Assembly (NCBI RefSeq): GCF_000816845.1
Contig: NZ_CP006877.1
Span: 811,501-875,500 of the forward strand
DNA: 64,000 nucleotides
Direction of reading: 5' to 3'
Source of the DNA: Rhizobium gallicum bv. gallicum R602sp
Lineage (GTDB): Bacteria; Pseudomonadota; Alphaproteobacteria; Rhizobiales; Rhizobiaceae
The translations under genes and the position numbers were made by a program. Within the stretch, counting starts at the first letter, position 1. Each line of letters opens with the position of its first letter. Below, piece after piece: positions 7,037 through 47,030 of the stretch. The notes under the pieces were generated by a model. The model ran no database searches and was not told the DNA's origin. It worked only from the letters and a program-made list of their open reading frames with translations.

Positions 7037-7211
7037 GACGCGCCGCAGTACAGTCACCAGCTACGCAAAACGGCACTAATCTTCGCTTCCGGGGCTATCC
7101 GGACCTTCAGCGGTTTTATATCTCTGCCGAAAAGGCAGCATGCCTTTGCCGTTACCCAGGAACGTCTCAGTCTGGCAAGACGGCGGAATGGCGAAGGGCT
7201 GTTCCGATCCC

Positions 7212-15645: not shown

Positions 15646-15873
15646 CAAAGACGAGAAAGTTCTTCGACCGGCTTCTGATCGCAAGCGGGACATCCAAGGG
15701 GCGAAGGAATACCACGTCGTTGACATAATCATCTGTCGCGTGCCGTTTTACGCCACCTTCTCGTTTGGACGCGAGGTCGGTTCACTGCGTGGGAATAATC
15801 AGATAGCGAAATATGATTTACTTGAAAAAATGTGGTTGTCTGGGGAATCTGGGGTCTTCCGCTGTCAGTCCGA

Positions 15874-20899: not shown

Positions 20900-21061
20900 C
20901 GCTGGCGCGGCGGCTTGGGATTACGCCTGGGCCGCAGCGTTGCGGGCGGATTACTTAACCGCGCATCAGAGCGAATAGGCGACCGGCGGCGCTTGATGAA
21001 TTGCCGTCGTTCGTTTGGATGAATCATCGTTCGGCCGGAAATCGCACGGGAGGAACTTAAG

Positions 21062-22684
<1,623 letters not shown>

Positions 22685-29759: not shown

Positions 29760-29964
29760 TGGAGGACGTCGCGTTGGGCATCAGTCAACAGGAGGGTACA
29801 GCGGCAATTATTTCCGCTGGCCGGGCCGAAGTCGTCATCTGGCGATGACCGCGTGCGTGACCGTTTTGGAATTGCGGACTTCGGCCGCGTCAGAAGCCTA
29901 GACGAAACGGCGTCCGAAAAGTCGCGACGGGATGAACAGCATCCCGCGGCGCCACGCTTATCGA

Positions 29965-31155: not shown

Positions 31156-31232
31156 CTTTCAGTTCCTTCTCAAAAAGGTCGGCGACGTCGAGCCCAGCTC
31201 GCCCGACGACGCCGGGTCGGTGGCTTCCTCGC

Positions 31233-32312: not shown

Positions 32313-32343
32313 GATCGGATCTCCTTCTATATGAGGCGTTTGG

Positions 32344-32811
32344 TTACTGGATACGTTCGATACGCAATGGGAATTGCCCTCGGACATGCAGCGCCTCGTA
32401 GCCGTCGTCGAAGCGTCCGAGGCGCACCAGCCCTGGATGCTTGTAGTCGGCGTAGAACATCGCGAGATTGCCCCAAGGCATGTAGTAGCAGAGGTCGTAC
32501 GGCCGCTCGTTCGTGAATGGGCCGTGGCCTTCCACGGTCAGTTTGCGAGGAAGGTAGGCGATCTTCTCGTTGGATCCGAAGTCGTCGATCTTGAGATCCA
32601 GCGGAAGCATGGAAGCGAAGTCGCGCGCCGACGGGTTGTCGTAGAGCGTCGCGGTCATCGTATGCTTTTCGAACGTCAGCCTGATCTTCACGTTGGTTCG
32701 CTCCTGATTATTGGGATCGCTCTGGCCGAACACGGTTCTTGGGAAGACTGCGGCGGCCATGGCCGTTGCGAGAAGGCTGCGTCGGGTCAGGTTCCTGAAC
32801 GGGATGCTCAT
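32344..32811 (-). CDS. Exported cyclophilin-like fold protein
   Basis: The 155-residue protein has a twin-arginine-like signal (LTRRSLLATAMAAAVFPRTV) and then a cyclophilin-like barrel of the small bacterial group: NVKIRLTFEKHTMTATLYDN, PSARDFASMLPLDLKIDDFG, LCYYMPWGNLAMFYADYKHP. Members occur with flavodoxin, MFS and hydrolase genes; they are not established prolyl isomerases. The ATG shares a base with the stop of the MFS gene, which indicates translational coupling. The longer open frame begins inside the MFS coding region and is ignored. The role is unknown. Confidence 0.82.
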   Translation of the reverse strand: MSIPFRNLTRRSLLATAMAAAVFPRTVFGQSDPNNQERTNVKIRLTFEKHTMTATLYDNPSARDFASMLPLDLKIDDFGSNEKIAYLPRKLTVEGHGPFTNERPYDLCYYMPWGNLAMFYADYKHPGLVRLGRFDDGYEALHVRGQFPLRIERIQ

Positions 32812-33989
32812 CACGACCTCGTCACACGCCACACTGCAAGGGATGCCAGCGATGATCCGCACAGCAGCGCGGCGCTAAGGGCGAAGGTGGACTGCCAGCC
32901 CACGACATCGAACAGAAGACCGCCGAGCGAGGCCCCGGCCGTGATCGCTAGCTGTATGACGGCAACCTGGAGTCCGCCGCCGGCCTCCACATCTTTCGGG
33001 AGAACGCGGCTCAGCCAGGTACCCCAGCCGACTGGCGCGGCCGTTCCGAGTAAGCCCCAGCCGACCAGCGACAGGAACACGGGGAGCTTCATGTCGCCGA
33101 ATGCGATCATGGCCAAGGCGATGCAGGCCATCAACAACGGGATGACCATGAGAATACTGAACAGGCGATGGGACAGGAGCCAGCCGATAACCCATGTGCC
33201 GACCGCTCCCGCGAGGCCCATCATCAGAAGCGCGAGCGAAAGCGTTTCGATCTCTAGGCTAGTCACTGTTTCCAGGAACGGCCGCAAATAGGTGAAGAGC
33301 GCGAACTGTCCCATGAAGAGGAGCAGGATCGCCCCCATGCCGAGCGCGACGGGCGGACGTCCCAGGAGCCGGAACACGTTTCCCGAGGTTCCCTCGCGGC
33401 GTGGGGGGAGGCTGGGCAGGCTGATCCACTGCCAGATGAGTGCGAGCAGCGCTACCGGGACGACGAGGAAGAAGGCGCCGCGCCACCCGATGTAGGCGCC
33501 AAGCAGGCTTCCCATCGGCGCGGAGATCGTCGCGGCGATCGCGTTGCCTGCGTTGAGCAGGGCGAGGGCCTTCGGCACTTGGTCTTGGGAGACGAGACGC
33601 ATCACGATCGCCGTGGACATCGACCAGAAGCCGCCGATCGAAATGCCGAGCAGGGCGCGACCCAGCATCAGGACCGGATAGGAAGGTGCGAGGGTCACTG
33701 TGATCCCCGACAGCATCAGCAGTCCCGTCAAAGCCAGTACGACCATGCGGCGGTCTGACCGGCGGATAAGCGTTGCGATGAACAGGCTGGTTAAGACGGC
33801 GAAGATGCCCGAAATCGAAATCGCCTGTCCTGTGTTTCCTTCCGAAACGCCGAGGTCGGCCGCGATGGGCGTGAGCAGGCTGACCGGCATGAATTCAGAC
33901 GCGATCAGCACGAAGACGCACAATGTCATGGAGAATACGGCCCCCCAAACCGAGCGTCTGCTGTCGATATGGTCGATGGTCAGCGTCAT
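32811..33989 (-). CDS. MFS transporter of the DHA1 group
   Basis: The 392-residue protein has about 12 membrane helices and the DHA1 pattern: VFSMTLCVFVLIASEFMPVS at the start, the RRSDRRMVVLALTG loop, and LLGISIGGFWSMSTAIVMRL, which resembles motif C of sugar/arabinose exporters such as AraJ and YdhP. Probable role is proton-driven efflux. The start is the ATG at 33989; the frame is open to 34397 but that would antisense the LysR gene. It is first in an operon with the cyclophilin-like protein, the hydrolase and the CMD-cupin protein, and is divergent from a LysR regulator at 34114. The exported substrate is not known. Confidence 0.9.
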   Translation of the reverse strand: MTLTIDHIDSRRSVWGAVFSMTLCVFVLIASEFMPVSLLTPIAADLGVSEGNTGQAISISGIFAVLTSLFIATLIRRSDRRMVVLALTGLLMLSGITVTLAPSYPVLMLGRALLGISIGGFWSMSTAIVMRLVSQDQVPKALALLNAGNAIAATISAPMGSLLGAYIGWRGAFFLVVPVALLALIWQWISLPSLPPRREGTSGNVFRLLGRPPVALGMGAILLLFMGQFALFTYLRPFLETVTSLEIETLSLALLMMGLAGAVGTWVIGWLLSHRLFSILMVIPLLMACIALAMIAFGDMKLPVFLSLVGWGLLGTAAPVGWGTWLSRVLPKDVEAGGGLQVAVIQLAITAGASLGGLLFDVVGWQSTFALSAALLCGSSLASLAVWRVTRS

Positions 33990-34113
33990 ATGCAATCGTC
34001 CTGGATGGATCTCGTTTTCAACGTTGCACGGAAGATAGTTCTTGCGTACTTTGCGGATAAGTCGAGCCAATCCGCATGGACCTATCGGTCTCCAATATGA
34101 ATAAGGTGCGCCG

Positions 34114-35013
34114 ATGCAGCGCGAGGACGTGAAGGATCTGCTCTGGTTCCTCGAGGTGGCGAAGGAGCAGAGTTTCACAAAGGCCGCCGCGAACCTCGGC
34201 ACGTCGCAGTCGACGCTCAGCCACGCCATCAAGCAGTTGGAGGCTCGCCTCGGCGTCCGTCTCCTGACAAGAACGACCCGCAGCGTCGCCACGACGGAAG
34301 CCGGGGAACGCCTGTTCAGGTCGATCGCTCCACGCTTCGATGGGATCGAAGCGGACCTTACAGATCTTGTCGCCTTCCGCGAAAAGCCGTCCGGCACCGT
34401 CCGGCTGACCCTGTCGGATCATGCCCTGCAGACGACGGTATGGCCGAAGCTGGCCCGCGTCCTCGCTGGCTACGCCGACCTCAAGGTCGAACTCTACGCC
34501 GACAACGGGATGCGCAACATCGTGGAGGAGCGCTTCGACGCGGGCGTGCGGCTGGGAGAGAGCGTCGACAAGGACATGATCGCCGTGCGGATCGGTCCCG
34601 ACTGGCGGCTTCGCGCCGTCGCCTCGCCGAAATATCTTGCGGCCTACGGATCTCCGACGACGCCGCAGGATCTTGTGGGGCATGTCTGCATCAACACACG
34701 CCAGGCGACATGGGGTGGATTCTATGCATGGGAGTTTGAGAAGGACGGTCGGGAACTCCGGGTCAGGGTTGACGGCCAGCTCAGCTTCAACTCCTCCATC
34801 GTCCAGATAGACGCCGCCTTAAACGGGTACGGGATCGCATATATCCCGGAAGACCTCGTCGAAGAGCACATCGCCGCGGGGAAGCTGCAGCCGGTTCTGG
34901 ACGACTGGAGTCAGCCGTTCACCGGCTACCATCTCTATTATCCCAGCAGACGTCAGATGTCGCCGGCCATGGCGGTGGTCGTAGACGCTCTTCGACATCG
35001 CGGCGGAGCTTGA
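34114..35013 (+). CDS. LysR-family regulator divergent from the MFS operon
   Basis: The 299-residue protein has the LysR winged helix at residues 4-62 (DLLWFLEVAKEQSFTKAAAN, then LGTSQSTLSHAIKQLEARLG) and the periplasmic-binding-like effector domain from about 90. The subtype resembles the AaeR/DmlR group that controls efflux or aldehyde-stress genes. The 124 bp up to the MFS start hold both promoters; LysR boxes are expected there, but I cannot point to a definite T-N11-A site. An insertion sequence begins about 25 bp after the stop codon. Target assignment is by divergence. Confidence 0.9.
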   Translation: MQREDVKDLLWFLEVAKEQSFTKAAANLGTSQSTLSHAIKQLEARLGVRLLTRTTRSVATTEAGERLFRSIAPRFDGIEADLTDLVAFREKPSGTVRLTLSDHALQTTVWPKLARVLAGYADLKVELYADNGMRNIVEERFDAGVRLGESVDKDMIAVRIGPDWRLRAVASPKYLAAYGSPTTPQDLVGHVCINTRQATWGGFYAWEFEKDGRELRVRVDGQLSFNSSIVQIDAALNGYGIAYIPEDLVEEHIAAGKLQPVLDDWSQPFTGYHLYYPSRRQMSPAMAVVVDALRHRGGA

Positions 35014-35036: not shown

Positions 35037-36628
35037 TTGGGCGGATATTGTTGATTTAGTCGGTGGTTGATCTCGTTACTGCTTCGAGAGGAGAGCGCAA
35101 CGATGATGGGGATGCAGTCGGAACCGGCGCAATTGTTTTACGATTTCTGCCTGGATGATCACCTCCCCGACGAACATATGCTGCGCGGCATCGATCGTTT
35201 CCTCGACTGCGGCGATATCCGCAGAGAGATGAAGCCATTTTACAGCTCAATTGGCCGGCCTTCGATTGATCCAGAGCTGATGATCCGGATACTGCTCGTT
35301 GGCTATTGCATGGGCATTCGTTCTAAGCGGCGTCTGTGCGACGAGGTCCATCTCAACCTTGCCTATCTCTGGTTCTGCAAACTCGGTCTCGACGGCAAAG
35401 TGCCTGACCACTCGACCTTCTCACGCAACCGCCATGGCCGCTTCCGCGACAGCGATCTTCTCCGTCATCTGTTTGAGACTGTCGTCAAGCGATGCATGTC
35501 AGAGGGCCTGGTGCGTGGCGAGGGCTTTGCCGTGGACGCAAGCCTGATCGCCGCCGACGCTAACAAGCAGCGCTCTGTTTCCGGTGAGGAGTGGGCCGCG
35601 CCAAACGACGAGGATGCCGCGCGTGCGGTCAGGGAATATCTGGAAAAGCTGGATGATGCCGCCTTTGGAGCGGCCTCGGAGGTGACGCCGAAGTTCATCT
35701 CTGCTGCCGATCCGGCCGCGCAATGGACCGGGGCGCACAAGGGCCATGCCTTCTTCGCCTATGCCACCAATTATCTGATCGACACCGACAATGCCGTCAT
35801 CCTGGATGTCGAGGCTAGTCGTGCCATCCGCCAGGCCGAGGTCGGCGCTTCCCGCACCATGATCGAGAGGACAGAGACAAGCCTTGGGCTCAAGCCAGAA
35901 TGGCTTGTGGCCGACACCGCTTATGGATCGGCCCCAAACCTTGCCTGGTTGGTAAAGGACAAGAAGATCACGCCGCACATCCCGGTCTTCGACAAGTCGA
36001 ACCGCACCGATGGCACGTTCTCACGGGCCGACTTCACATTTGATGCGGATGCAAACCACTACATCTGCCCGGCGGACAAGCTGCTGGTGCAATTCCGGCG
36101 TACCTACGACAAGCCGCGGACCGGCATCACGAAGGCCGGAACCAAGCTTTACAGGGCCAGCAAGAAGGACTGTGCGGTCTGCGATCTGAAGCCAAAATGC
36201 TGCCCGAACATGGTCGCTCGAAAGGTTCCGCGCGACGTCAATGAGGATGCCCGCGATGTGGCCCGTGCGTTGGTTGGAACGCCGGAATACGAGCGCGCAC
36301 GACATCTCCGCAAGAAGGTCGAGATGCTGTTCGCTCACCTCAAACGGATATTGAGGCTCGGGCGGCTGAGACTGCGAGGTCCACGCGGTGCGCGTGACGA
36401 GTTTCTGCTGGCCGCCACCGCGCAAAATCTACGAAAGCTCGCAAAATTGCGACCTCTCGTGGCTCCAACCAACCCGATCGCGGCATAGGGAGCATAGAAA
36501 TGCGGGCCACGCCACCTACCACCAGCACCGAAGCTCGATAAACGAGGCACTACCCGACGGAACCATCAGCTATGAGACGGCAGACACGTTGAATCCGCGA
36601 CTAAATCAACAATATCGGCCGATTGCGG
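35037..36628 (+). mobile_element. IS1182-family insertion sequence
   Basis: The element contains one transposase gene flanked by inverted repeats. The left end (35043-35062) and the right end (36603-36622) share the core GATATTGTTGATTTAGTCG in opposite orientation, with weaker similarity a few bases further out. A target duplication is not obvious. The right end abuts the broken 5' end of an integrase gene, while no remaining integrase is found left of the element, so adjacent DNA was probably deleted. Outer limits are accurate to about 10 bp. Confidence 0.8.
35103..36488 (+). CDS. IS1182-family transposase
   Basis: The 461-residue protein has the IS1182/IS1380-like N-terminal domain (FYDFCLDDHLPDEHMLRGID, IDPELMIRILLVGYCMGIRS), the VPDHSTFSRNR motif and a DDE core with FAVDASLIAADANK (first Asp) and LVADTAYGSAPNLAWLV (second Asp). 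A Cys-rich insertion (CPADK, CAVCDLKPKCC) and the C-terminal VEMLFAHLKRILRLGRLRLR carrying the Glu-region complete the pattern. The ATG at 35103 has GAGGAGAG in front. The frame is intact over the full length, so the element may be mobile and its insertion fairly recent. Confidence 0.92.
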   Translation: MMGMQSEPAQLFYDFCLDDHLPDEHMLRGIDRFLDCGDIRREMKPFYSSIGRPSIDPELMIRILLVGYCMGIRSKRRLCDEVHLNLAYLWFCKLGLDGKVPDHSTFSRNRHGRFRDSDLLRHLFETVVKRCMSEGLVRGEGFAVDASLIAADANKQRSVSGEEWAAPNDEDAARAVREYLEKLDDAAFGAASEVTPKFISAADPAAQWTGAHKGHAFFAYATNYLIDTDNAVILDVEASRAIRQAEVGASRTMIERTETSLGLKPEWLVADTAYGSAPNLAWLVKDKKITPHIPVFDKSNRTDGTFSRADFTFDADANHYICPADKLLVQFRRTYDKPRTGITKAGTKLYRASKKDCAVCDLKPKCCPNMVARKVPRDVNEDARDVARALVGTPEYERARHLRKKVEMLFAHLKRILRLGRLRLRGPRGARDEFLLAATAQNLRKLAKLRPLVAPTNPIAA

Positions 36629-36644
36629 ACCTCAATCCAAACAC

Positions 36645-36708
36645 GAGCGCGCCAGTAAAATATGTTGCCGCGGCCAGTAAGGTTCTCGACGTCGTGGCGG
36701 ACCGCCAT
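36645..36708 (-). pseudogene. 5' stub of a tyrosine integrase, broken beside the IS element
   Basis: Twenty-one codons read MAVRHDVENLTGRGNIFYWR followed by ARV and then lose similarity about 20 bp before the IS end. They match the first codons of the integrase remnant at 44747-44975 (MAVRHEVENLIRRGNIFYWR). The DNA upstream of the start codon is also alike, through to the tRNA-Gln end copy. This is the second integrase of the region, destroyed by the IS insertion and deletion. Confidence 0.75.
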
Positions 36709-36887
36709 GGGGTATTTGCCCTTGCCTGCCACCTGCTATACCGCCACGCAGTTTTCGCGTGGGCATCACCTGTGGGCACCAGTTCTGGTGCATCAGGTCG
36801 CCAATGATGCCAAAACGATATCCAGCACGACTAGAAAATCAAGGAATTAAGGGGATTTAGAGAGAATTGGCTGGGGAGCCTGGATTC
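36648..36887. repeat. Direct repeat: integrase start plus attachment-site copy (partner 44912-45152)
   Basis: About 240 bp here resemble the DNA at 44912-45152. Common stretches include GGGCATCACCTGTGGGCACC, CAGGTCGCCA, ATGATGCCAAAACG, AAAATCAAGGAA and GAGAATTGGCTGGGGA. The repeat joins the 5' end of an integrase to the 3' end of tRNA-Gln in both places. It is the basis for reading the region as two elements inserted in tandem. Confidence 0.8.
36862..36887. other. Attachment-site-like copy of the tRNA-Gln 3' end
   Basis: The plus strand reads GAGAATTGGCTGGGGAGCCT then GGATTC, against GAGAATTGGCTGGGGAACCT then GGATTC at the real tRNA. Orientation is the same. There is one mismatch over 26 bp, after which similarity stops. 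This is the expected form of an att site left by integration at a tRNA 3' end. Confidence 0.7.
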
Positions 36888-37140
36888 TCACATGATTTCA
36901 ATGACTTAGCGAAATCGCCTTTGAATTCCCTATATTTTCCCGCCGCGAGCGACCGTGGATGCCACCTTTGTGCCCGGCTTTGGGCCTCAGTCAACCGGTG
37001 TGCAAAACGGTAATAATTTCCGCTCTTGGGGCGTAAAGCGGACCTCGCACGTCAGGGTGTTAAGGTCCGAATCGCGTGGATAGCAGAAGTTCAAAGCGAA
37101 GCCGCTGAAAAGCCGCTTTGCGCGCCATAGCGGCCATATT
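36888..37140. other. Intergenic region with no recognisable feature
   Basis: The 253 bp between the att copy and the end of the cyclase-hydrolase gene contain no credible gene. With the integrase stub and the IS end, the whole stretch 36489-37140 is non-coding. Near 37095 there are two close GCCGCT repeats without terminator character. Confidence 0.4.
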
Positions 37141-38550
37141 TCACTGGTTGTACGCTGTCAGGAACCTGGAGTACTCGTCAAAGAACTGTTCGAAGGCAGC
37201 CGTGTCCTCCATGAGCACATGATTGTTTCCAGGAAGCTCAACGAAGGTCGCGTTAGGAATAAGCGTAGCCATGAGACGCCCTTCCTCTATCGGCGCGACG
37301 CGATCGCCGATGCAATGCAGGACCAACGTCGGAACATTGACCTGCTTCGCCAACTCCGTCACATCGACCGTGCTGTTCATTTTCCAGATCCGCATCGCCG
37401 CTTCCGGACTCGTAGCAATGCGCTGAAGTTCGTCGAAATTCGCAGCCATCTCGGGCTGAGCGTCGGGCATGAAGGTTGTTGTAAAAAAATGCCTGAAGAC
37501 TGGATTGGTCGAGCCCCAGCCGTCGCGGATCATCATCGTCCCGAGTTTATAAAGGTGCTTTTGGTCCGGTTGCGTCCGCTTGAGCCGACCCCGAAGAAAT
37601 CCGCCCAAGAGGACGAGGCAGGTCACCTGCTCGGGATTCTCCACGGCGTAGCGGACACTGAATGAGCATCCTTGCGAAATGCCGAGAAGCGCGAACCGGC
37701 TCAGTCCAGCAGCGGCTGCGACGGTCGACATGTCGCCAGTCATTGCCCCCTCGGATACAGCTTCGACGCCCCAATCCGATAGGCCATTTCCCCGCTGGTC
37801 GAATCGTACCAGCCGGCACAGCCTCGCCAACCTGACCAGCCATGGGTGCCAGATTGGACTGCGCCATTCATACTCCAGATGGTTCAGCCAATTCGGTGCC
37901 TTCAGCACCGGCATCCCTTGGCCAATACTGGCCCACGCGATCTGCACTCCGTCTGGGGCAGTGGCGAACTGTACCTGTTGTTGCTGCGCAGCTTTGGGAA
38001 GCTCCGAGCTAGGCAGCGAAGCGTCGGGTGTCCACTGCCAAACCCGGATGGGGCGGGAGATATTCTTCACCCGCTGGTTGCCCATGTCGCGAAAAGGCAC
38101 TTTGATCTTATCCGCGACCGCTTGATGTACAATGTCGGAGATGCAGATGCCGCCTGGCTTCGCCAGCCCCTCAAGGCGGGAAGCCACGTTGACGCCATCG
38201 CCGAAGATATCTCCATCCTCGAAGAGGACATCCCCGAGATTGATCCCGAGGCGGTAGAGAATGCGGCGTTCTTCCGGTGACGCTCCCTCACGGTCCGCCA
38301 TAGCCACTTGGATGTTGATGGCGCAGCGGACGGCATCCTGTGCTGAAGCGAATTCGACCAACATCCCGTCGCCCGTGGTCTTGACGATGCGGCCTCCACG
38401 AGTTGCGATCTGCGGATCGAACAACTCCGTGCGGTGCACCTTCTGACGCGTAAGGATATCTTCCTCATTTTGCTCCATGAGGCGGCTATAGCCTGCCATG
38501 TCGGCGGCCAGAATCGCGGTCAAGCGACGTTCCACAGAGCGCGTCCCCAT
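37141..38550 (-). CDS. Adenylate cyclase fused to an alpha/beta hydrolase
   Basis: The 469-residue protein joins a class III cyclase domain (about 8-180; LTAILAADMAGYSRLMEQNE, VKTTGDGMLVEFASAQDAVR, DIFGDGVNVASRLEGLAKPG) to an alpha/beta hydrolase (about 200-465). In the latter, LLGISQGCSFSVRYAVENPE holds the nucleophile Ser, TLVLHCIGDRVAPIEEG the acid and LPGNNHVLMEDTAAF the His. This fusion is common in rhizobia, where it is assumed that the hydrolase part senses or acts on a small molecule while cyclic nucleotide is made. It has no signal peptide. It lies alone on the minus strand inside the inner island, with no partner genes in the operon. Confidence 0.9.
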   Translation of the reverse strand: MGTRSVERRLTAILAADMAGYSRLMEQNEEDILTRQKVHRTELFDPQIATRGGRIVKTTGDGMLVEFASAQDAVRCAINIQVAMADREGASPEERRILYRLGINLGDVLFEDGDIFGDGVNVASRLEGLAKPGGICISDIVHQAVADKIKVPFRDMGNQRVKNISRPIRVWQWTPDASLPSSELPKAAQQQQVQFATAPDGVQIAWASIGQGMPVLKAPNWLNHLEYEWRSPIWHPWLVRLARLCRLVRFDQRGNGLSDWGVEAVSEGAMTGDMSTVAAAAGLSRFALLGISQGCSFSVRYAVENPEQVTCLVLLGGFLRGRLKRTQPDQKHLYKLGTMMIRDGWGSTNPVFRHFFTTTFMPDAQPEMAANFDELQRIATSPEAAMRIWKMNSTVDVTELAKQVNVPTLVLHCIGDRVAPIEEGRLMATLIPNATFVELPGNNHVLMEDTAAFEQFFDEYSRFLTAYNQ

Positions 38551-38691
38551 AGTTTCAGCCAGATATCACACTACCACATGTCGGCGATCGGATTAAGATT
38601 GAGCGCAAGTGCCGAGCCTTTGAGAAAATGCACATCGTAATGCGACGACCGGCTGAACGGCCGCATCGGGCTTGCAAACGAACATAAGAGC

Positions 38692-39588
38692 TCACTGTCG
38701 CGAGAGCTCACGCGCAAGTTCCAAGAACGCCCTCACCCCGGCTGACAGATTTCGGCGCCCAGGGTAGTAAAGGCAAAGCCCCGGATATGGTGGCGTCCAG
38801 TCTTCCAGTACACGGACGACGCGCCCCGCCTCAATGTCCGGGAAAATGTCTTGCTCGAAGATGTAGCCTATACCGGCGCTTTCCAGGACAGCGGTTCTTG
38901 TGAGGCCAGCCTCGTCCAGGGATATCGGACCGCGTGCATCGATTTGCACCTGCTCCCCGTCCTTCTCGAAACGCCACCGAAACGAGGAGCCATCGGGCAG
39001 GCGAACGCGAATGCATCGATGGCTGAGAAGGTCGGGAGGGACCACCGGCTTCCCATGCCTCTCGAAGTATTCAGGAGACCCAACCACAGCATGTCGCTGG
39101 GGGTGGCCGAGCGAAACGGCAATCATGTCGCTGGGAACGAGGCCCGCAACCCTAACCCCCAGATCAAACCCGTCCTTGACGATATCAACCATCTTTCCTT
39201 CAGTTACAATATCGACATTCATGTCGGGATAGCGGCGCAGGAACTCAAGCACGAGCGGTGAGATGATGGCGCGAGCCGCAAACGGCGCCGCGTTGATCCG
39301 TATTGTTCCGGAAGGTGTCTCACGTTGCGCACGCACCGAATCCAAAGCGGCATAGAGATCCTGGAGCGACGGCGCCACCTGCTGCACAAAGAGCCTGCCG
39401 GCATCTGTGAGCGACACGCTGCGTGTGGTGCGGTTGAACAATCGCACTCCCAGCCCCGCCTCAAGCCTGCCGATTGTGTGGCTCAGCGCGGTCGTGGACA
39501 TGTCGAGATCGATGGCCGCTGCACGGAATGTCCCACGCCGGGCAATAGCAATAACCGCTTCAAGTTCTTTCAGGCTGGTCTGTTCCAT
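38692..39588 (-). CDS. LysR-family regulator divergent from NTF2/SDR genes
   Basis: The 298-residue protein has the LysR DNA-binding domain (residues 5-63; [40 protein letters not shown]) and an effector domain starting near residue 90. It resembles the AaeR/DmlR-type subgroup, as does the regulator at 34114. It faces the NTF2-like gene at 39685 over 96 bp, where its operator should lie. Regulation of that operon in response to a small electrophile or carbonyl compound is inferred from the enzymes encoded there. Confidence 0.9.
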
Positions 39589-39684
39589 TGTCCCGGTCTG
39601 TTCATTACCGCATGCCGGTTTATCCCACTTATCTACGCAATGGTCGAGCGCTAACTATCGGGTCAACCAGTGAGGAGAAACACA

Positions 39685-40005
39685 ATGGATATGCCCGATA
39701 TCGTGAACATGTACTTTGACGCTGAGAGCGGCAGCAACGCGGATGCGCTGTCGGACACCTTTGCGATCGAAGCCGTTGTCGAAGATGAGGGATCGCGCCA
39801 TCAAGGCGTCGTCGCAATCCGTGAATGGTGGGTGGCAGCGAAGAAGGCGACTCAGTACGTTTCTGAACCTTTGGAATCCACCATTGACGGCAACAGAGTG
39901 CTCGTCCGAGCCAAAGTTAGCGGCCAGTTTCCCGGCAGTCCGGTGACGCTCTCATATGCCTTCACCATCAAGAACGGCAAGATCGCTAAGCTGGAGATCC
40001 GGTGA
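39685..40005 (+). CDS. NTF2-like (SnoaL-type) small protein
   Basis: The 106-residue protein has the cone-shaped NTF2-like fold pattern: [20 protein letters not shown] at the start, [29 protein letters not shown], and the closing strands [17 protein letters not shown]. Such proteins are ligand-binding isomerases, cyclases or partners of SDR enzymes. The ATG at 39685 has GAGGAGAAA upstream and is preferred over a GTG five codons before. Its TGA overlaps the ATG of the SDR gene by one base, so the two are translationally coupled. The specific reaction is unknown. Confidence 0.8.
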
Positions 40006-40784
40006 TGACAGACTTTCTCAACCTGAGAGGCAAACGAGCCCTCATCACTGCTGGAACCAAGGGCGCCGGGGCTGCGACCGTCAGCCTGTTTCGGGAACTC
40101 GGCGCGCAGGTGTTGACGACCGCGCGGGCGCATCCTGAGAACCTGCCGGAGGAATTGTTTGTCGAGGCCGACCTCACGACTGAAGAGGGGTGCGCGGCCG
40201 TCGCGGACGTTGCGCGTCAACGTCTCGGCAACATCGATATCATCGTTCATATGCTGGGTGGCTCGTCAGCAGCCGGCGGTGGTTTTGGGGCGCTAACTGA
40301 TGCCGAGTGGCACAAAGAAATGTCGCTCAATCTTTTTCCCGCTGTTCGACTCGATCGCGAATTGGTTCCAGACATGGTCGCACGCGGAACCGGTGTGGTT
40401 GTGCATGTCACGTCCATCCAAAGAGTGCTGCCTCTCCCGGAAGCGACTACCGCTTACGCTGCAGCCAAGGCAGCACTCTCGACTTATAGCAAGGCCATGT
40501 CCAAGGAGGTGTCGCCCAAGGGCGTCCGCGTCGTGCGAGTTTCTCCGGGTTGGATCGAAACGGAAGCGTCCGTCCACTTGGCCCAGCGCTTGGCGGACAA
40601 GGCGGGCACGGACCTTGAGGGTGGCAAGAAAATTATCATGGATAGCTTGGGTGGCATACCTCTCGGGCGCCCGGCCAAGCCGACGGAAGTCGCAGACCTG
40701 ATTGCCTTCCTGGCATCGGATCGCGCTGCATCGATCACTGGTACCGAATACACCATCGATGGAGGAACGGTGCCAACAGCTTAG
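40005..40784 (+). CDS. Short-chain dehydrogenase/reductase
   Basis: The 259-residue classical SDR begins [20 protein letters not shown], a variant of the TGxxxGxG dinucleotide site with Ala-Gly-Thr-Lys. Catalytic Ser is in [17 protein letters not shown] and the YxxxK pair is in [40 protein letters not shown] and the C-terminal [11 protein letters not shown] are typical. It should oxidise or reduce an alcohol/ketone with NAD(P). Translation is coupled to the NTF2-like gene upstream. It ends about 20 bp before a convergent MarR/OhrR gene. Confidence 0.9.
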
Positions 40785-40804
40785 GAACGAGACGCCTTCA
40801 CGGA

Positions 40805-41272
40805 TCAAGCGGGTGCGTCCCAGCCGCCGATCTGTGAATAGATGGCGTCGCGGAGATGCCGGACATCGCGATTCAAGGATGCCAACTCCTGAGGCGTCTG
40901 TGTAGAGGTTGCGAGCAGGGTGTCGCTGAGGCAGCCGGCCCTGTGCTGCAACGTGCGTCCCTCGTTCGTCAATGCAACGACAACCTGCCGTTCATTGCTC
41001 AGATTTCGTGTCCGTCGCAGCAAACCCGATGCTTCAAGACGCTTCAGAAGTGGCGTAAGCGTGCTGGATTCCAGAGCGAGGGTATGGGCGATGGCACCAA
41101 CCGTCTGCTCGTCCTCACGCCAGAGGACGTTGAGCACGAGGTACTGCGGATAGGTCAAGCCCAGTTGGTCGAGCAATGGCTTATAGGCGCGCTGAATAGC
41201 GATGCCCGCGGTGTAGATTGCGTAGCAAAGCTGATCATGAAGCGCTGGTGGATCGTTATGCCGTTCGGTCAT
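40805..41272 (-). CDS. MarR/OhrR-family redox-sensing regulator
   Basis: The 155-residue protein is a winged-helix MarR member of the OhrR group. It keeps the reactive N-terminal cysteine (Cys16 in LHDQLCYAIYTAGIAIQRAY) and the LGLTYPQYLVLNVLW helix. The wing region is LALESSTLTPLLKRLEASGL and then RRTRNLSNERQVVVAL. OhrR proteins usually repress an organic-hydroperoxide reductase and release DNA when the cysteine is oxidised. Here no ohr gene is adjacent; it is divergent from an alpha/beta hydrolase at 41417. Palindromes in the intergenic region fit its operators. A nearby extra cysteine in AGCLSDTLLA could form the second redox partner. Confidence 0.88.
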   Translation of the reverse strand: MTERHNDPPALHDQLCYAIYTAGIAIQRAYKPLLDQLGLTYPQYLVLNVLWREDEQTVGAIAHTLALESSTLTPLLKRLEASGLLRRTRNLSNERQVVVALTNEGRTLQHRAGCLSDTLLATSTQTPQELASLNRDVRHLRDAIYSQIGGWDAPA

Positions 41273-41322
41273 TTGTAAACTCCTATCGGCTCAGAAATAG
41301 CAAATGATACCGCAAAAAACAA

Positions 41323-41332
41323 TATCGCGATA
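41323..41332. promoter_or_regulatory. Palindrome TATCGCGATA, probable MarR/OhrR operator
   Basis: A perfect 10-bp palindrome lies in the 144 bp between the regulator and the hydrolase gene. It shares its half-site (GCGATA) with the palindrome at 41379, so both may bind the same dimer. Position suggests autoregulation. Confidence 0.5.
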
Positions 41333-41378
41333 AATGATGTTTGACACGGAAAATGAAATCTGCCAGCTTATAGTTACC

Positions 41379-41395
41379 GCGATAACAGTTATCGC
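41379..41395. promoter_or_regulatory. Inverted repeat GCGATAA-CAG-TTATCGC, probable MarR/OhrR operator
   Basis: This perfect 7+7 bp inverted repeat with a 3-bp centre ends 21 bp before the hydrolase start codon, overlapping where its promoter or transcription start should be. The size fits a MarR dimer site. I infer repression of the hydrolase gene until the regulator is oxidised or bound by ligand. Confidence 0.6.
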
Positions 41396-41416
41396 ATACA
41401 CAAAGAGGAGAAAGCC

Positions 41417-42199
41417 ATGACCACCAGGACCATATTGGCCGCCGTCGCAGCCGCAGCCGCAATATCCGCCGCAGTGCCTGCGAACGCTGCGGACATAATC
41501 CGTGAAAACCAGACCGTGAAAAACGTTGTACTCGTTCACGGTGCCTTCGCCGATGGCTCTGGCTGGAGGGGCGTCTACGACAATCTCACGAAGCGCGGAT
41601 ATCGCGTCACCGTCGTCCAGAATCCGTTGACCTCCCTCGAAGACGATGTTGCCGCCACCAGGCGCGCAATCGAACGACAGGATGGTCTCGCCATTCTGGT
41701 AGGCCATTCATGGGGTGGTACAGTCATTACGGAAGCCGGCATCGATGCGAAGGTCGCGGGGCTGGTCTACGTCTCCGCGCTGTCACCGGACGCAGGCGAG
41801 ACGACGGCCCAGCAGTATGAAGGTTTTGCCCCTGCAACGGAATTCGTCATCGAGACCACGAAAGATGGTTTTGGTTATGTCAGCCCCGAAAAGTTCAAGG
41901 CGGGATTTGCGCATGACGTTAGCGACGCCGACGTCGCCTTCATGCGGGACGCGCAGGTCCCCATCAACATGTCGGCGTTCGGCACGAAGCTGGAAAACGC
42001 TGCTTGGCGAACCAAGCCAAGCTGGGCTGTCATCGCCACCGAAGACAAGGCATTCGACCAAGCCATGCTGATCCATATGGCAGAGCGGATTAAAGCCAAG
42101 ATTACCAAGGTTTCAGCAAGCCACGCGCTGTTCATGACGCAGCCGACGGTGGTGGCGGACACTATCGACGAGGCCGCGAAAACTGTTTCGGCGCAGTAA
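41417..42199 (+). CDS. Exported alpha/beta hydrolase
   Basis: The 260-residue protein has a signal peptide (MTTRTILAAVAAAAAISAAV, cleavage after ANA) and an alpha/beta hydrolase domain of the EstC/salicylate-esterase type. VVLVHGAFADGSGWRGVYDN contains the oxyanion region, Ser nucleophile is in AILVGHSWGGTVITEAG, acid probably in WAVIATEDKAFDQ and His in VSASHALFMTQP. The ATG has AAAGAGGAGAAAG upstream. It is divergent from the OhrR-like gene and has an operator palindrome in its promoter. Periplasmic hydrolysis of an ester is likely; the substrate is unknown. Confidence 0.9.
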   Translation: MTTRTILAAVAAAAAISAAVPANAADIIRENQTVKNVVLVHGAFADGSGWRGVYDNLTKRGYRVTVVQNPLTSLEDDVAATRRAIERQDGLAILVGHSWGGTVITEAGIDAKVAGLVYVSALSPDAGETTAQQYEGFAPATEFVIETTKDGFGYVSPEKFKAGFAHDVSDADVAFMRDAQVPINMSAFGTKLENAAWRTKPSWAVIATEDKAFDQAMLIHMAERIKAKITKVSASHALFMTQPTVVADTIDEAAKTVSAQ

Positions 42200-42369
42200 G
42201 GATGATCATTCGAGCTTTATCATCGGGACAGGCATCCCTGTTCCGATGATTGCTTGCTGGAACGTCCTCAAACCGTCGATCTCCAATTGAGATCGATTGC
42301 GCCTTTGAGCCGTTAGCGCGCACCGCCATTTCTCACAATTTAAGCTCATCAATTCACAAAGGTAACCCC

Positions 42370-43998
42370 GTGGATCAGAATACGCATGACCTAAACCGAC
42401 ATGAAAATCCGGCACCAACACGTCATGAGGTTTCAGACGATTTTGATTTTATCGTATGTGGAGCGGGCTCCAGTGGTTCAGTGATTGCCGCTCGACTGGC
42501 AGAATGCGGAGACGCCCGCGTCTTGCTTCTTGAGGCAGGCGGCGATGACGTAGCCGAGTCTGTTAGAGACCCGGCGCAATGGCCACTCAATCTCGGCACG
42601 AGCCGTGACTGGGGTTTCGTTGGAGAGCCGGCGCCTGAGCTCTGCGGTAGGCGGCTTCCTCTCAGCATGGGCAAGGGTCTGGGCGGCGGCTCGAGCATCA
42701 ATGTCATGGTCTGGGCGCGAGGCCACAAGGAAGACTGGAATCATTTCGCGGCCGAAGCGGACGATGAAGCCTGGGGCTATGAATCGGTTCTCGGCTACTA
42801 TCGGCGGATCGAAGACTGGCGCGGCCCGCCAGATGCTGTGCGCCGCGGCGCTGGAGGGCCGGTTTATGTCGCCCAGCCACGTTCGCCACAGCCCATCGCG
42901 GAGGCTCTATTGAACGCTGCATCGGCGATTGGCATTCCGGTATTCGACACTCCGAACGGCGAACTGATGGAAAGTGCCGGAGGTGCATCGATCGCGGAAC
43001 TGCGCATCCGGGATGGCAGGCGGGAGTCCGTATTCGGATCCTATGTTCGTCCGCTCATGTCACGACCAAACCTTACGGTCCTCACCGACGCGTTGGTCAC
43101 GAGCATCATCTTCGATGGCAAACGGGCGACAGGCGTTGAGGTTCTCGTCAACGGTCAGCGGCGTGCGTTCACTGCGCGATGCGAAACGGTGTTGTCGCTG
43201 GGTGCGATAAACACGCCAAAGGTGCTGATGCAGTCAGGCATTGGCCCGAAGGATGAACTGAAAGCTCACGGGATACCTGTCGTGCAGCATCTCCCTGGTG
43301 TGGGTCGAAATCATCAGGATCATCTCGCGTTCGGCTGCACGTGGGCATATCGAAAGCCGGAGGGCGTCGGTGGGGGAGGTTGCGAAGCAAAACTCTTCTG
43401 GAAAAGCGACTCTCGCCTCTCTCAGCCGGACATTCTTCAGTGCCAGTTGGAGTTCGCCGTACCTTCGCCGGCGGAAACAGGTCTGGAAACCCCGGCGCAT
43501 GGCTGGACGATGTTTTCAGGGCTTGCGCAGCCGAAAAGCCGTGGCCGGCTGAGGCTCTCCGGCCCCAATACAAACGACCCTATCCTGATTGAACCAAATT
43601 CTCTCAGTGAGCCGGAAGACATGGCTGCCGCCTTGGCCGCGGTTGAGCTGTGCCGCGAACTCGGAAACAGCGACGCCTTCACGCCGCTGGTCACGAGCGA
43701 GGCAGCTCCGGGCACACGCGACCGGGCAGGGATGATCGATTTCATCCGAAAGTCGGCCGTCACTTACTGGCACCAGTCCTGCACGGCCAAAATGGGACGC
43801 GACAGCATGTCCGTGGTCAATAACGAGCTCAAGGTCTACGGGATTGAAAGTCTTCGTATCGCAGATGCCTCGATCATGCCGCGTATCACCACCGGAAACA
43901 CGATGGCACCGTGTGTCGTCATCGGAGAGCGCGCAGGCGATTTGATCAGGAAGACGCATGGTCTTGCTGTCTTGAGTGGTGTCGCTCCATTCGCCTGA
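42370..43998 (+). CDS. GMC-family FAD-dependent oxidoreductase
   Basis: The 542-residue protein from the GTG at 42370 belongs to the glucose-methanol-choline family. The FAD dinucleotide site is DFIVCGAGSSGSVIAARLAE. GKGLGGGSSINVMVWARGHK is signature 1, and VLSLGAINTPKVLMQSGIGP is signature 2. Catalytic His is in TYWHQSCTAKMG and the second residue (Asn) in ITTGNTMAPCVVIGERAG. It would oxidise an alcohol, perhaps choline-like or a polyethylene-glycol-type compound. The frame opens earlier (42250), but the GTG follows AAAGGTAA and the early part has no similarity to the family. It follows the hydrolase by about 170 bp on the same strand and may share control. Confidence 0.88.
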   Translation: MDQNTHDLNRHENPAPTRHEVSDDFDFIVCGAGSSGSVIAARLAECGDARVLLLEAGGDDVAESVRDPAQWPLNLGTSRDWGFVGEPAPELCGRRLPLSMGKGLGGGSSINVMVWARGHKEDWNHFAAEADDEAWGYESVLGYYRRIEDWRGPPDAVRRGAGGPVYVAQPRSPQPIAEALLNAASAIGIPVFDTPNGELMESAGGASIAELRIRDGRRESVFGSYVRPLMSRPNLTVLTDALVTSIIFDGKRATGVEVLVNGQRRAFTARCETVLSLGAINTPKVLMQSGIGPKDELKAHGIPVVQHLPGVGRNHQDHLAFGCTWAYRKPEGVGGGGCEAKLFWKSDSRLSQPDILQCQLEFAVPSPAETGLETPAHGWTMFSGLAQPKSRGRLRLSGPNTNDPILIEPNSLSEPEDMAAALAAVELCRELGNSDAFTPLVTSEAAPGTRDRAGMIDFIRKSAVTYWHQSCTAKMGRDSMSVVNNELKVYGIESLRIADASIMPRITTGNTMAPCVVIGERAGDLIRKTHGLAVLSGVAPFA

Positions 43999-44009
43999 AG
44001 ATGCTTTAG

Positions 44010-44049
44010 AAGAGCTCGGCGGTCAGCATACACTGGCGGTCGAGCTCTT
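44010..44049. terminator. 9-bp inverted repeat after the GMC gene, possible terminator
   Basis: AAGAGCTCG and CGAGCTCTT form a perfect stem across 22 bases, 11 bp after the stop codon, followed by only TTT. The long loop and short T run make termination uncertain. The rest of the 312 bp up to 44310 holds no gene I can support. Confidence 0.35.
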
Positions 44050-44310
44050 TGCGCCCTCTTGGGTCAACCGTTCGGCGTGTTCAAGACCTTCTACGAGCAC
44101 CTCATAGATGAGCGCTTACTGAGTTGTGCTCAGCATATTGACGGCAGTGTCGCGCACCCAATCGGGCATTGAGCCTCAGAGATAGAGCCCGGAAAAGCAG
44201 ACAGTCACTTCCGAAATTGTCGAAGTGCAGGAGGAAGCCAAGTCGCCGCAGAAAACCTGCGGTATCCGACGAAAAACATCGATTCGCCCTCGATTTGACC
44301 TCCGGCATAA

Positions 44311-44585
44311 CTAAGTAGCGACCAGTTCGGCGATTTTAGCGGCGACTTCCGCCATCGGCTCCTCGGCAGTATTCAGCCCGGCTCGGGAGGCTAGCAGGAG
44401 GCTGACCTGTTCAAGCTCTTCATAGGTCGTTCCGTGAACGACCGGGACGAGCCGCTCTCGCCGGAGTAGCGCCGAAAGCTCTTTGTCTGCGATGCGTTCT
44501 GCCGGGAGGCGCCGCAACAGAGCCGGGGTCACCAAAACGATACCGACCGCGAATTCACCAAGCCCTTGTCGATCGCCCGCATCAT
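44311..44585 (-). pseudogene. Frameshifted C-terminal half of a TIR-domain protein
   Basis: In one frame the DNA reads MMRAIDKGLVNSR; after a single-base shift near 44545 it continues VGIVLVTPALLRRLPAERIA, DKELSALLRRERLVPVVHGT and LLLASRAGLNTAEEPMAEVA, ending at 44311. This order matches the second half of bacterial TIR domains: the DxGL-NSR helix, the GIVVLSPAFL strand, the E-L-x-ALL helix and the VIPVWHG strand. The first half, with the nucleotide-binding loop, is missing and replaced by DNA next to the integrase remnant. The family call rests on the recalled consensus and is fairly strong; the gene itself is dead. TIR proteins in such islands often act in NAD-depleting defence. Confidence 0.6.
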
Positions 44586-44746
44586 CGGCGCCCGAGGCGA
44601 AGGCTTCTGAAAGTCGGTTGTGGCCCTGAGACGACCGACATGAGGTGAGCGACGGAGTGGTATATATGCTAGGCTCTGGCCGACAGCGGAATGACAGCTA
44701 CCGGCCCTCTCGAGTTCCTTGTCCCGCTCATGCTCGAACAGGATCT

Positions 44747-44975
44747 GGAGCTGCTGTTTGGTGGTCATCGCGTCCTTCGAATTCATCTTCAGTTCGGCCA
44801 GCCGGGTGTTGAGCTTCCGGCCGATGATCTGAGCCTTTCTATGGTCCGAACAATGAAGGCTGAGTGAAAGACGGCTACCCGGACGGCAGTGAACGAATGC
44901 GGCGGGGATGCGCGGCCGCCAGTAAAAGATGTTTCCGCGGCGGATCAGATTCTCGACCTCGTGGCGCACGGCCAT
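44747..44975 (-). pseudogene. N-terminal remnant of a tyrosine recombinase/integrase (DUF6538-type)
   Basis: About 76 codons read MAVRHEVENLIRRGNIFYWR, PRIPAAFVHCRPGSRLSLSL, KAQIIGRKLNTRLAELKMNS and LQILFEHERDKELER. This is the N-terminal arm-binding region of rhizobial site-specific integrases. The catalytic R-H-R-Y domain is absent; after codon 76 the frame enters unrelated DNA and the TIR remnant. The start codon faces the tRNA-Gln 3' end 159 bp away, the normal arrangement for an island integrase. Confidence 0.75.
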
Positions 44976-45152
44976 GACGAATACCCTGTCTTCGCCCGAA
45001 GGATCGGCTGCAGCGCATTGCGCGCCTGGGCATCACCTGTGGGCACCAGTTCTGGGCATCAGGTCGCCATTGATGCCAAAACGGGATCCGGCACGACTGG
45101 AAAATCAAGGAACTAAGGGCTTTTAGGGAGAATTGGCTGGGGAACCTGGATT
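44912..45152. repeat. Direct repeat: integrase start plus tRNA-Gln 3' end (partner 36648-36887)
   Basis: This is the right-hand copy of the repeat described at 36648. Here it merges with the functional tRNA-Gln gene. The integrase start, the leader with GGGCATCACCTGTGGGCACC and the att core are in the same order and orientation as in the left copy. Confidence 0.8.
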
Positions 45153-45207
45153 CGAACCAAGATCGACGGAGTCAGAGTCCGCTGTTCTACCATTGAACTA
45201 TTCCCCA
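45134..45207 (-). tRNA. tRNA-Gln (anticodon CUG)
   Basis: Read on the minus strand, the gene begins TGGGGAATAGTTCAATGG and ends with GGTTCGAATCC and CAGGTTCCCCAGCCA, forming a complete cloverleaf. The anticodon loop CTCTGAC gives CUG, so it charges glutamine. The CCA end is encoded. The 3' end overlaps the att core, so integration has kept the tRNA whole. Confidence 0.92.
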
Positions 45208-45425
45208 GCAGCGCGCGGCCGGCAAAGCGGCTCCGCTGGTGTGCGGCGCTTATAAACAAAAGCCGGAGGAATGCAAATACCTGTTTTGGAAAAATTTCTG
45301 CTCCCTAATCGGGTGAGGTCGAGCGGGTCTCAAATTCTGAATCCAAAAAGAATTTGGCGATTTTGCATCGCGCTGGTATTCTCGCGGCAACGCAAAAATC
45401 TAATGAGCGCCTGCTGCATACCGTC

Positions 45426-47030
45426 ATGGACTTGCGCGGCGCGTGGAAAACGAACGTGGAAGACCCCGAAGGCGGCGCAAAGCCGCAATTTGACGGGGCG
45501 TCAGCGGCAGTGCGCAGGGACGGCAAGAAATCCCGGCGCCGAAAGGGCAAACGGGGCGGTCAGTCCCGCAACGCGCCTCATGCCGCTTCGCAGGCCTCCT
45601 CCGAGACATCCGGAGAGGCAGCGCGCCCGATGGAAGCTGCAGCCGGGAACCCGGCCCGCAAGCGCAAACGCCGCCGCGGTAACGGCGGCCAGCGGCATGA
45701 CGGCGCATCCCCAGCGATCCAGCAGCATGAAAAGCCGGCTTCGGCCGCGCAGGCCGATGGCGACGCTTCATCCAGCCGCCGCAACCGGCGCAAGCACCGC
45801 GGGAAGCGCGGCCTGCAGGGCCGTCCGCTGGCGCCTGGCAAGCCGGTCGGCCAGCCGGGGATCGCCGCCCAGCCTGCCGCCATTGCCCGGGATCCTGCCA
45901 TTGCGAGAACCCCAACAACGGCCAAGGCCAATGGGCATTCCGAGCCTCGAAACGATGGCTTCAATCGCGGCGGCCGGCCGCCTGAACGCGAGCGCCGCGA
46001 TCAGGGAGCCGAGCATCCCTGGCCGGACGAACTTTATGCCGCGCTCGACCTCGGCACGAACAACTGCCGCCTGCTGATTGCCCAGCCCACCCGGCCGGGC
46101 CAGTTCCGCGTCGTCGATGCCTTTTCGCGCATCGTGCGCCTCGGCGAGGGGCTTGCCGCGAGCGGCCGCCTTTCCAACGAGGCGATGGACCGCGCCGTCG
46201 ATGCGCTACGCGTCTGCGCCGGAAAGCTGAAAAGCCGCGAGATCCGCCGCATGCGACTGATCGCCACCGAAGCCTGCCGTCAGGCGGCAAATGGCGCCAT
46301 TTTCCTAAATCGCGTCGTTGCCGAAACCGGCCTCGAACTGGAGATCATCGACCGCGAAACGGAAGCCCGCCTTGCGGTATCCGGCTGTTCGTCACTGGTC
46401 GGCCGCGAAACGCGTTCCGTCGTGCTTTTCGATATCGGCGGCGGCTCCTCGGAAATAGCGGTCATCCGCATCGGCGAGAATCGGTTCAGCCGCCTTGCCA
46501 ATCACATCACTCACTGGACCTCGCTGCCGGTCGGCGTCGTCACGCTTTCCGAGCGCCACGGCGGGCAGCATGTGACGCCGGAGAGCTTCGAGACCATGGT
46601 ATCGGAGGTGGGGGGCATGCTTGCGCGGTTCGACTGCCCGGAAATCGAGGTCGCACATTCCGGCGATTTTCACCTGATCGGCACGTCCGGCACGGTGACG
46701 ACGCTGGCGGGCGTCCACCTCGACCTGCCGCGCTACGACCGCCGCAAGGTGGATGGCATCTGGCTTTCGGATGACGAGGTTTCAGCCATGCAGGCGAAGC
46801 TTCTTTCGTGGGATTTCGACAGCCGCGCCGCCAATCCCTGCATCGGGCCGGACCGCGCTGACCTGGTGCTCGCCGGCTGTGCCATTCTGGAGGCGATTCG
46901 CCGCCGCTGGCCGAGCCCGCGCATGCGCGTCGCCGACCGCGGCTTGAGAGAAGGCCTCTTGACCGACATGATGGCGGACGACGGCGTCTGGCGGCGCCAT
47001 CGAAACCGCCGCGGCCAGCGCGCAAGGTAG
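45426..47030 (+). CDS. ppx: Ppx/GppA-family exopolyphosphatase/guanosine pentaphosphatase
   Basis: The protein (534 aa from the ATG at 45426) has a basic, low-complexity N-terminus of about 170 residues ([22 protein letters not shown]), typical of rhizobial versions, then a Ppx/GppA domain. [20 protein letters not shown] is the phosphate-1 loop, [20 protein letters not shown] follows, and [20 protein letters not shown] is the phosphate-2 loop. It hydrolyses polyphosphate or pppGpp in the cytoplasm. Several starts are possible (45354, 45426, a GTG at 45456), and none has a strong ribosome site. The gene is followed 7 bp later by rlmE, so the two are probably co-transcribed. Confidence 0.88.

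What the first reader, a model, noticed from the sequence alone, without database searches (positions are those of the whole stretch)
36648..45207. Two islands in tandem at tRNA-Gln, each with an integrase start next to an att copy
The integrase 5' remnant plus leader plus tRNA-Gln 3' end occurs twice in the same orientation, at 36648-36887 and 44912-45207. The inner element (36.9-45.1 kb) lies between the two att-like sites; an outer element must extend left from 36.87 kb. Both integrases are broken, so the elements are now fixed. This explains why the region from pepT to tRNA-Gln is a mosaic.
Basis: partly seen in the sequence, partly recalled or inferred. Interest (0 to 1): 0.72.

Follow-up and report, generated by a model that had tools for sequence, protein, structure and literature searches.

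The report
Tandem mobile islands at Rhizobium tRNA-Gln
This stretch of a Rhizobium chromosome is a stack of mobile DNA units that entered at the same tRNA gene; stacking of this kind is known, but related strains suggest that some units carry no integrase and have a conserved end of their own.

Summary
w36650-36887 and w44917-45153 align at 80.6% over 242 bp in the same orientation, and both end in the 20-bp 3' end of tRNA-Gln. Each is the right end of an integrative element: integrase 5' end, leader, tRNA core. Right of the left core lies a conserved left end (LE, w36868-37030) that recurs in relatives.

In two of 148 Rhizobium genomes the left flank lies under 100 bp from tRNA-Gln; these empty sites make about 44 kb (w1.14-45.13) inserted DNA.

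The middle unit's cargo recurs in one relative (G162, 80%) between an LE and a different right end. Both window integrases are stubs; six relatives keep a whole ~696-aa tyrosine recombinase beside the tRNA.

In relatives some LEs follow the integrase leader, others an integrase-less arm with an inverted core 146-162 bp away. I read this as two ways of growing: accretion at the tRNA, and insertion of integrase-less units at the far end. The second is inferred. Known kind, possibly a new variant.

The parts
   Evidence: Pfam M20_dimer and Peptidase_M20; matched in 145 of 148 genomes, one only barely; alignments outside the nearest group end at w1068-1139
7033..7093 (+). tail of an element left end (LE); the att core itself is deleted
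   Evidence: weak model hit, 11.8 bits, E 0.0047; G137 has a degenerate leader-core-LE at the same point and is 96-97% identical on both sides
15728..15857 (+). place where G137, G092 and G100 carry an LE; the window has none, only a core-like 20-mer with 4 mismatches
   Evidence: inferred from relatives
29070..29741 (-). sulfatase gene that keeps only its C-terminal part and ends at the LE remnant
   Evidence: Pfam Sulfatase profile positions 221-300 of 301
29770..29821 (+). LE tail: left border of the middle unit
   Evidence: 36.6 bits, E 1.1e-10; this copy was not in the model
29918..35003 (.). cargo of the middle unit: CMD/cupin protein, S15/S9-type hydrolase, cyclophilin-like protein, MFS transporter, LysR regulator
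   Evidence: Pfam; 80% over 5.1 kb in G162
35041..36620 (+). insertion sequence with a DUF772/DDE_Tnp_1_6 transposase (35067-36488) and imperfect terminal inverted repeats
   Evidence: limits approximate
36650..36867 (-). right end of the middle unit: integrase stub (about 20 codons from 36708) and leader
   Evidence: 258 bits; this copy was in the model
36868..36887 (+). att core, copy of the tRNA-Gln 3' end, one mismatch
36888..37030 (+). LE of the inner unit
   Evidence: 174 bits with the core; this copy was in the model
37141..43998 (.). cargo of the inner unit: cyclase-hydrolase fusion, LysR, SnoaL-like, SDR, MarR, alpha/beta hydrolase, GMC oxidoreductase
   Evidence: Pfam; two modules with different relatives
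44529..44975 (-). integrase stub of the inner unit, DUF6538
44976..45133 (+). leader (right arm) of the inner unit
45134..45207 (-). tRNA-Gln(CTG), the target; its 3' end 45134-45153 is the core
45354..47030 (+). ppx, right chromosomal flank
   Evidence: Pfam Ppx-GppA

Best explanation
w1.14-45.13 kb is a decayed tandem array of integrative elements at the 3' end of tRNA-Gln. Each element had a conserved left end (core plus about 145 bp), cargo, and a right end made of a tyrosine recombinase gene reading away from the tRNA and its leader. The recombinase joined circular elements to the 20-bp tRNA end; each newcomer took the place next to the tRNA and pushed older ones left, leaving leader-core-LE junctions such as w36650-37030. 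Shown: the ends and their orientation, the empty site, an exchange point inside the core, breakage of both window integrases. Inferred: the circular forms, the order of arrival, about five units, and that an insertion sequence took part in losing most of the middle element's integrase side.
For: Direct repeat and tRNA. Conserved LE and RE in relatives. In sequences that hold the tRNA, 31 of 31 LE and 35 of 35 RE hits of at least 40 bits share its orientation. Empty sites in 2 of 148 genomes. In 7 genomes with GACTC in the tRNA core, 15 of 15 LE cores have T at that base, 9 of 9 tRNA-adjacent RE cores have C, 2 of 2 internal RE cores have T. G118 follows the G078 empty site up to the core and then becomes LE. 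Whole integrase without stops beside the tRNA in 6 of 148 genomes.
Against: No excision or transfer has been seen; it is all sequence comparison. The two window copies are only 80.6% alike and the left LE relics are partial; that at 7 kb is marginal on its own. No LE is visible at w15.7. Parts of the cargo live elsewhere without listed LEs. LEs also occur where no tRNA was found within the fetched stretch (10 loci), so the tRNA is not the only site.
Confidence: 0.88

Rival explanations
1. One composite island entered once and already carried several internal LE and leader copies; it later broke up. No repeated insertion at the tRNA took place.
For: Arrays with whole integrases share a long stretch next to the integrase (for example G104 and G118, 17 kb at 85%), so large parts may travel together. 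A review notes that a whole composite may move at once (PMC5704250, passages).
Against: The number and kind of units differ between relatives, the same cargo stands in different arrays with its left edge at an LE (12 of 79 matches of at least 1.5 kb, from two cargo families; none in 200 randomisations).
Confidence: 0.08
2. Segmental duplication: the integrase start and tRNA end were copied within the chromosome by ordinary recombination.
For: The repeat alone would allow it.
Against: The sequence right of the left core is not tRNA but an LE shared with other species; empty sites exist; the core base pattern follows site-specific exchange.
Confidence: 0.02
3. On the integrase-less units of relatives: they are not independent cassettes but decayed elements (cis-mobilizable elements) that kept their ends; the B arms are right ends of relatives of this element whose integrase gene was lost.
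For: The published decay-and-accretion scheme (PMC5704250, passages). Deletions are common here: G163 keeps 1.2 kb between LE and tRNA, G103 and G114 have integrase stubs. The 10.7-kb cargo is followed by a B arm in G103, G114 and G118 but by the integrase gene in G156.
Against: Five unrelated cargoes share the last 150 bp before the LE at 76-89% and B families resemble each other (leave-one-family-out: 12 of 13 arms recovered, 9 of 13 at E<0.001), which suggests a maintained end. I found no integrase next to a B arm other than the stub in G103, but I did not search for one beyond the fetched sequences.
Confidence: 0.5

Closest known systems
ssrA-specific genomic islands of Dehalococcoides (PMC3146451, passages read)
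   Same: Tandem islands at one RNA gene, bounded by a 20-bp repeat of its 3' end; some with an integration module, some without; strain-specific cargo
   Different: There a serine recombinase and a six-gene module at tmRNA; here a DUF6538 tyrosine recombinase at tRNA-Gln, with a 165-bp left end and, in relatives, a B arm
Accretion of ICE/IME with cis-mobilizable elements, CIMEs (PMC5704250, passages read)
   Same: Decayed elements keep att sites and stack with new arrivals at the 3' end of a gene
   Different: No conjugation gene was named among the parts I annotated; integrase-less units have a right arm unlike that of the integrase-bearing ones
Tycheposons (original description not held; passages of PMC10872708 read)
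   Same: tRNA-associated, tyrosine recombinase, variable cargo
   Different: Prochlorococcus and Methylophilaceae in the passages read; relation of the recombinases not tested
Integron cassette arrays (recalled, no call)
   Same: Integrase-less units in one orientation, separated by sites that hold a core and an inverse core, at a locus with an integrase
   Different: Units of several kb instead of single genes; the stretch between the cores does not fold beyond shuffles; the protein is a DUF6538 recombinase; the integrase sits at the tRNA end

Membership tests
tRNA-targeting integrative element (genomic island) | repeat of the tRNA 3' end at both borders | tested here: met
tRNA-targeting integrative element (genomic island) | tyrosine recombinase gene beside the tRNA | tested here: met
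   stubs in the window; whole protein in relatives with Phage_integrase above cut-off and DUF6538 just below it, 26.3 of 27 bits; R500/R501, K532, H605, R608, H609, Y642 invariant in 17 sequences, their catalytic role recalled
tRNA-targeting integrative element (genomic island) | empty site in relatives | tested here: met
   G078 and G151
tRNA-targeting integrative element (genomic island) | excision as a circle | not testable with these tools
   needs PCR or reads
tandem accretion | hybrid junction right end-core-left end between units, same orientation | tested here: met
   w36650-37030; 10 of 50 LEs preceded by a clear RE; orientation
cis-mobilizable element (CIME) | no integrase, both att ends kept | tested here: inconclusive
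   the window units have integrase stubs; integrase-less units with LE and B arm exist in relatives, mobility untested
ICE or IME | conjugation or mobilization genes | not tested
   no dedicated search; none named in the Pfam scans of 18 proteins of w13.5-44.5 or of the backbone of G104
integron | attC-like site that folds as a single strand | tested here: not met
   16 sites: mean z -1.46 whole, -0.35 without the inverted cores; controls -0.02 and 0.04
Dehalococcoides ssrA islands | serine recombinase DsiB at tmRNA | tested here: not met
   tyrosine recombinase at tRNA-Gln
tycheposon | same recombinase family and tRNA set | not tested
   no reference sequence fetched

The most novel reading that the evidence does not exclude
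The Rhizobiaceae carry a cluster-capture system at tRNA-Gln: a DUF6538 tyrosine recombinase next to the tRNA, perhaps with a convergent 777-aa partner, assembles arrays of integrase-less multi-gene units. These have a common left end and a right arm with an inverted core, and enter at the far end of the array, so that growth is integron-like on the scale of whole gene clusters (catabolic and anti-phage).
Probability: 0.25. Interest if true: 0.75.

Novelty: new variant of a known kind. Interest (0 to 1): 0.5.

Why it matters
The array explains how one chromosomal site in Rhizobium collects catabolic, transport and restriction gene clusters, and its ends are precise enough to find such units by sequence alone: LE matches occur in 38 of 394 sampled genomes of the family, from 19 of 109 genera, and in 23 plasmid records. 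If integrase-less units move by themselves, the site is a natural capture device for gene clusters, and growth at two ends can be tested in harmless soil bacteria.

Tried and rejected
attC-like folding of the B arms: whole-site mean z -1.46, without the inverted cores -0.35, controls -0.02 (10 leaders) and 0.04 (16 cargo pieces); only the cores pair, so rejected. Structure prediction of the 777-aa neighbour: mean pLDDT 51.7, not used. Solved-structure searches with the integrase and with both alignments: no match at E<=1. NCBIfam: nothing for the integrase or its neighbour. Phage records: three weak integrase matches covering 24-60%. Arm motif GGCATC: 6 in 396 bp against 1.5 per kb in the window; chosen after the fact, so given no weight. 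Papers: none for DUF6538 with integrase; one for Rhizobium, genomic island, tRNA-Gln and integrase, a genome announcement seen only in the listing; the S. meliloti hot-spot paper has no hit for gln. In one search the protein query files held many records, so most of its printed tblastn rows are not from the intended query; I use its orientation counts and the first block of rows (the 777-aa protein), which includes the 100% self-match.
Full report
Observation. The two segments are a real direct repeat (80.6%, 242 columns, E 8e-45; score 240 against a maximum of 31 in 200 shuffles). The right one runs into tRNA-Gln(CTG) 45134-45207, minus strand, the only tRNA of the window; the left one ends in a 20-bp copy of the tRNA 3' end with one mismatch. 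Reading away from the tRNA, both hold the start of the same integrase, and both are broken. The right frame carries DUF6538.

Host. The window is G000:C1:811501-875500 of a 7.3-Mb genome. The nearest named ppx genes are from Rhizobium mongolense (97%). 148 genomes of the genus, the window's own included, were searched. Species names for G genomes are my inference from equal contig lengths.

Empty site. The left flank (M20 peptidase gene) has a match in 145 of 148 genomes, in G102 only barely. In G078 and G151 the flank match and the match that covers tRNA-Gln are 84 and 97 bp apart, and alignment shows them continuous. In the window the same marks are 44 kb apart. By eye, in the listed rows, both marks lie on one contig in the same orientation in 20 genomes (window included), 0.1-77 kb apart; in the others they lie on different contigs or in other contexts, which says nothing either way. 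Only the two are empty.

Ends. Aligning the sequence right of 13 internal cores gives a conserved left end (LE) of about 165 bp with the core, one of the 13 (G100_10018) departing after about 45 bp and left out of the model; aligning the sequence left of 17 cores gives the right end (RE), integrase start plus leader. Models of both find in the window LE at 36868 (174 bits), 29770-29821 (36.6 bits) and 7050-7093 (11.8 bits, E 0.0047), and RE at 36650 and 44917; the next RE hit has 2.8 bits. The strong hits were in the training sets, the two weak LE hits were not. The relic at 7 kb would be marginal alone, but G137 has a degenerate leader-core-LE at exactly that point. The relic at 29.77 kb abuts a sulfatase gene that keeps only its C-terminal part. 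At w15.7 the window has no LE, but G137, G092 and G100 do where they leave the shared sequence. In sequences that hold the tRNA (32 of the 46 used), 31 of 31 LE hits and 35 of 35 RE hits of at least 40 bits share the tRNA's orientation.

Exchange point. In seven genomes the tRNA core reads GACTC instead of GATTC. There 15 of 15 LE cores keep T, 9 of 9 tRNA-adjacent RE cores have C, and 2 of 2 internal RE cores have T. So strands were exchanged left of that base, and the right part of each LE comes from the element. In genomes whose tRNA has T the test says nothing. G118 shows the chromosome border: its sequence follows the empty site of G078 up to the core and then becomes LE.

Cargo. The middle unit (w29918-35003) matches G162 at 80% over 5.1 kb, where it lies between an LE and a B arm; no other genome has the whole unit in the listed rows (two candidates scored per genome). 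In the window an insertion sequence (about 35041-36620) lies between this cargo and the integrase stub; an IS-linked deletion is suggested, not shown. The inner unit joins two modules: w38.70-44.05 is found at 78-80% in ten genomes, in two of them in two pieces, away from the tRNA, and w37.08-38.67 at 97% in G164 and G075. w1174-15727 is shared with G137 at 92-97% with gaps. Among 79 matches of at least 1.5 kb between arrays with LE in both genomes, 12 start within 45 bp of an LE core in both; 200 randomisations of LE positions gave none. The 12 are two cargo families, so two independent cases; the other 67 do not start at an LE in both.

Integrase. The whole protein is 696 aa with Phage_integrase above its cut-off and DUF6538 just below. 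24 of 148 genomes have a match at E<=1e-20, some remote or fragmentary; six have it whole without stops, G162 has one stop, G156 has 612 of 696 residues. 133 homologues at E<=1e-10 were found among the scored candidates; most of those with a species name are Rhizobiaceae (120 listed). A convergent 777-aa gene lies beside the integrase in G118, G104, G101, G064 and G170, and in part in G122. It has no Pfam, NCBIfam or solved-structure match (the first two with the 743-aa reading of G104) and 1338 homologues, a few named integrase by sources. Its invariant R572, H719, R722 and Y754 recall a tyrosine recombinase; that is my reading, and the model was too poor to test it. Genes nearby in G104 include an MmeI-type enzyme, Mrr and HNH nucleases and an AAA ATPase.

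Two kinds of junction. I classed 50 LEs in 46 sequences, chosen from those fetched because they hold arrays or integrase ends. Ten are preceded by a clear RE (core tRNA-type in 9, unclear in 1). Eighteen are preceded by another conserved arm, the B arm (core of type B in 12, tRNA-type in 2, unclear in 4). Eight have only a weak RE match at the core (tRNA-type 7, unclear 1), fourteen nothing known (tRNA-type 11, B 2, unclear 1). Sixteen of the 18 B arms and the two other type-B LEs have an inverted core 146-162 bp to the left; none of the other 30 do. The arm model was built on 13 of these arms and includes the inverted core, so the two marks are not independent; leaving out one family at a time recovers 12 of 13, 9 of 13 at E<0.001. 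B arms stand beside unrelated genes. The B1 arm occurs in 7 of 148 genomes, in 6 of them next to an LE listed. Of 35 tRNA-adjacent cores, 27 have RE, 8 neither, none a B arm. In G118, G156, G122, G101, G162 and G104 the leftmost LE that I fetched has the tRNA-type core; only in G118 is it shown to be the chromosome border, and in G104 an RE stands to its left. A simple model fits: whole elements enter at the tRNA, integrase-less units at the left border. Decayed elements that kept their ends are the main rival, and I rate it higher.

Spread. In the genus 53 of 148 genomes match an LE query that includes the core; by eye 33 have a row of at least 94 bits, the rest being mostly core-only. Without the core, 38 of 394 sampled genomes of the family match, from 19 of 109 genera. 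23 plasmid records match.

Literature. Tandem islands with a repeated RNA-gene end, with and without an integration module, are described for Dehalococcoides (PMC3146451, passages); accretion onto decayed elements is reviewed in PMC5704250 (passages); tycheposons I know here only through passages of PMC10872708. Searches listed no paper whose title or shown abstract describes this Rhizobium system; one search listed 15 of 44, and the library lacks most subscription journals.

Verdict. The finding is correct and its interpretation stands, extended from two to about five units. The phenomenon is of a known kind; the B-arm units, which are in relatives and not in the window, may be a new variant.

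Noticed in passing
w18983-22684: Two neighbouring sulfatase genes share an 83% repeat near their starts (19140-19288 and 20966-21118), which suggests an old tandem duplication.
   Followed up: partly
w44310-44560: A 250-bp stretch beside the integrase stub matches G026 (88%) and, inverted, a unit of the G122 array (84%); no Pfam hit for the open frame. By eye it recalls a TIR protein end.
   Followed up: partly
L262 (R. johnstonii 3841 pRL11 107276-121885): A restriction island on a reference-strain plasmid is bounded by the same LE and integrase-leader end, with no tRNA found in the fetched stretch L235.
   Followed up: partly
L143:14759-17089: 777-aa protein convergent with the whole integrase: 1338 homologues, no Pfam family; perhaps a second tyrosine recombinase.
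   Followed up: partly
L122 and L128/L129 (G116, G141): A second att style: internal copies of about 48 bp of the tRNA end, without LE or integrase leader of this family, so another element family may use the same tRNA.
   Followed up: no
G000:C1:4080765-4080862: A weaker match (73%) to leader plus tRNA end elsewhere in the window's own genome; possibly another tRNA-Gln gene.
   Followed up: no
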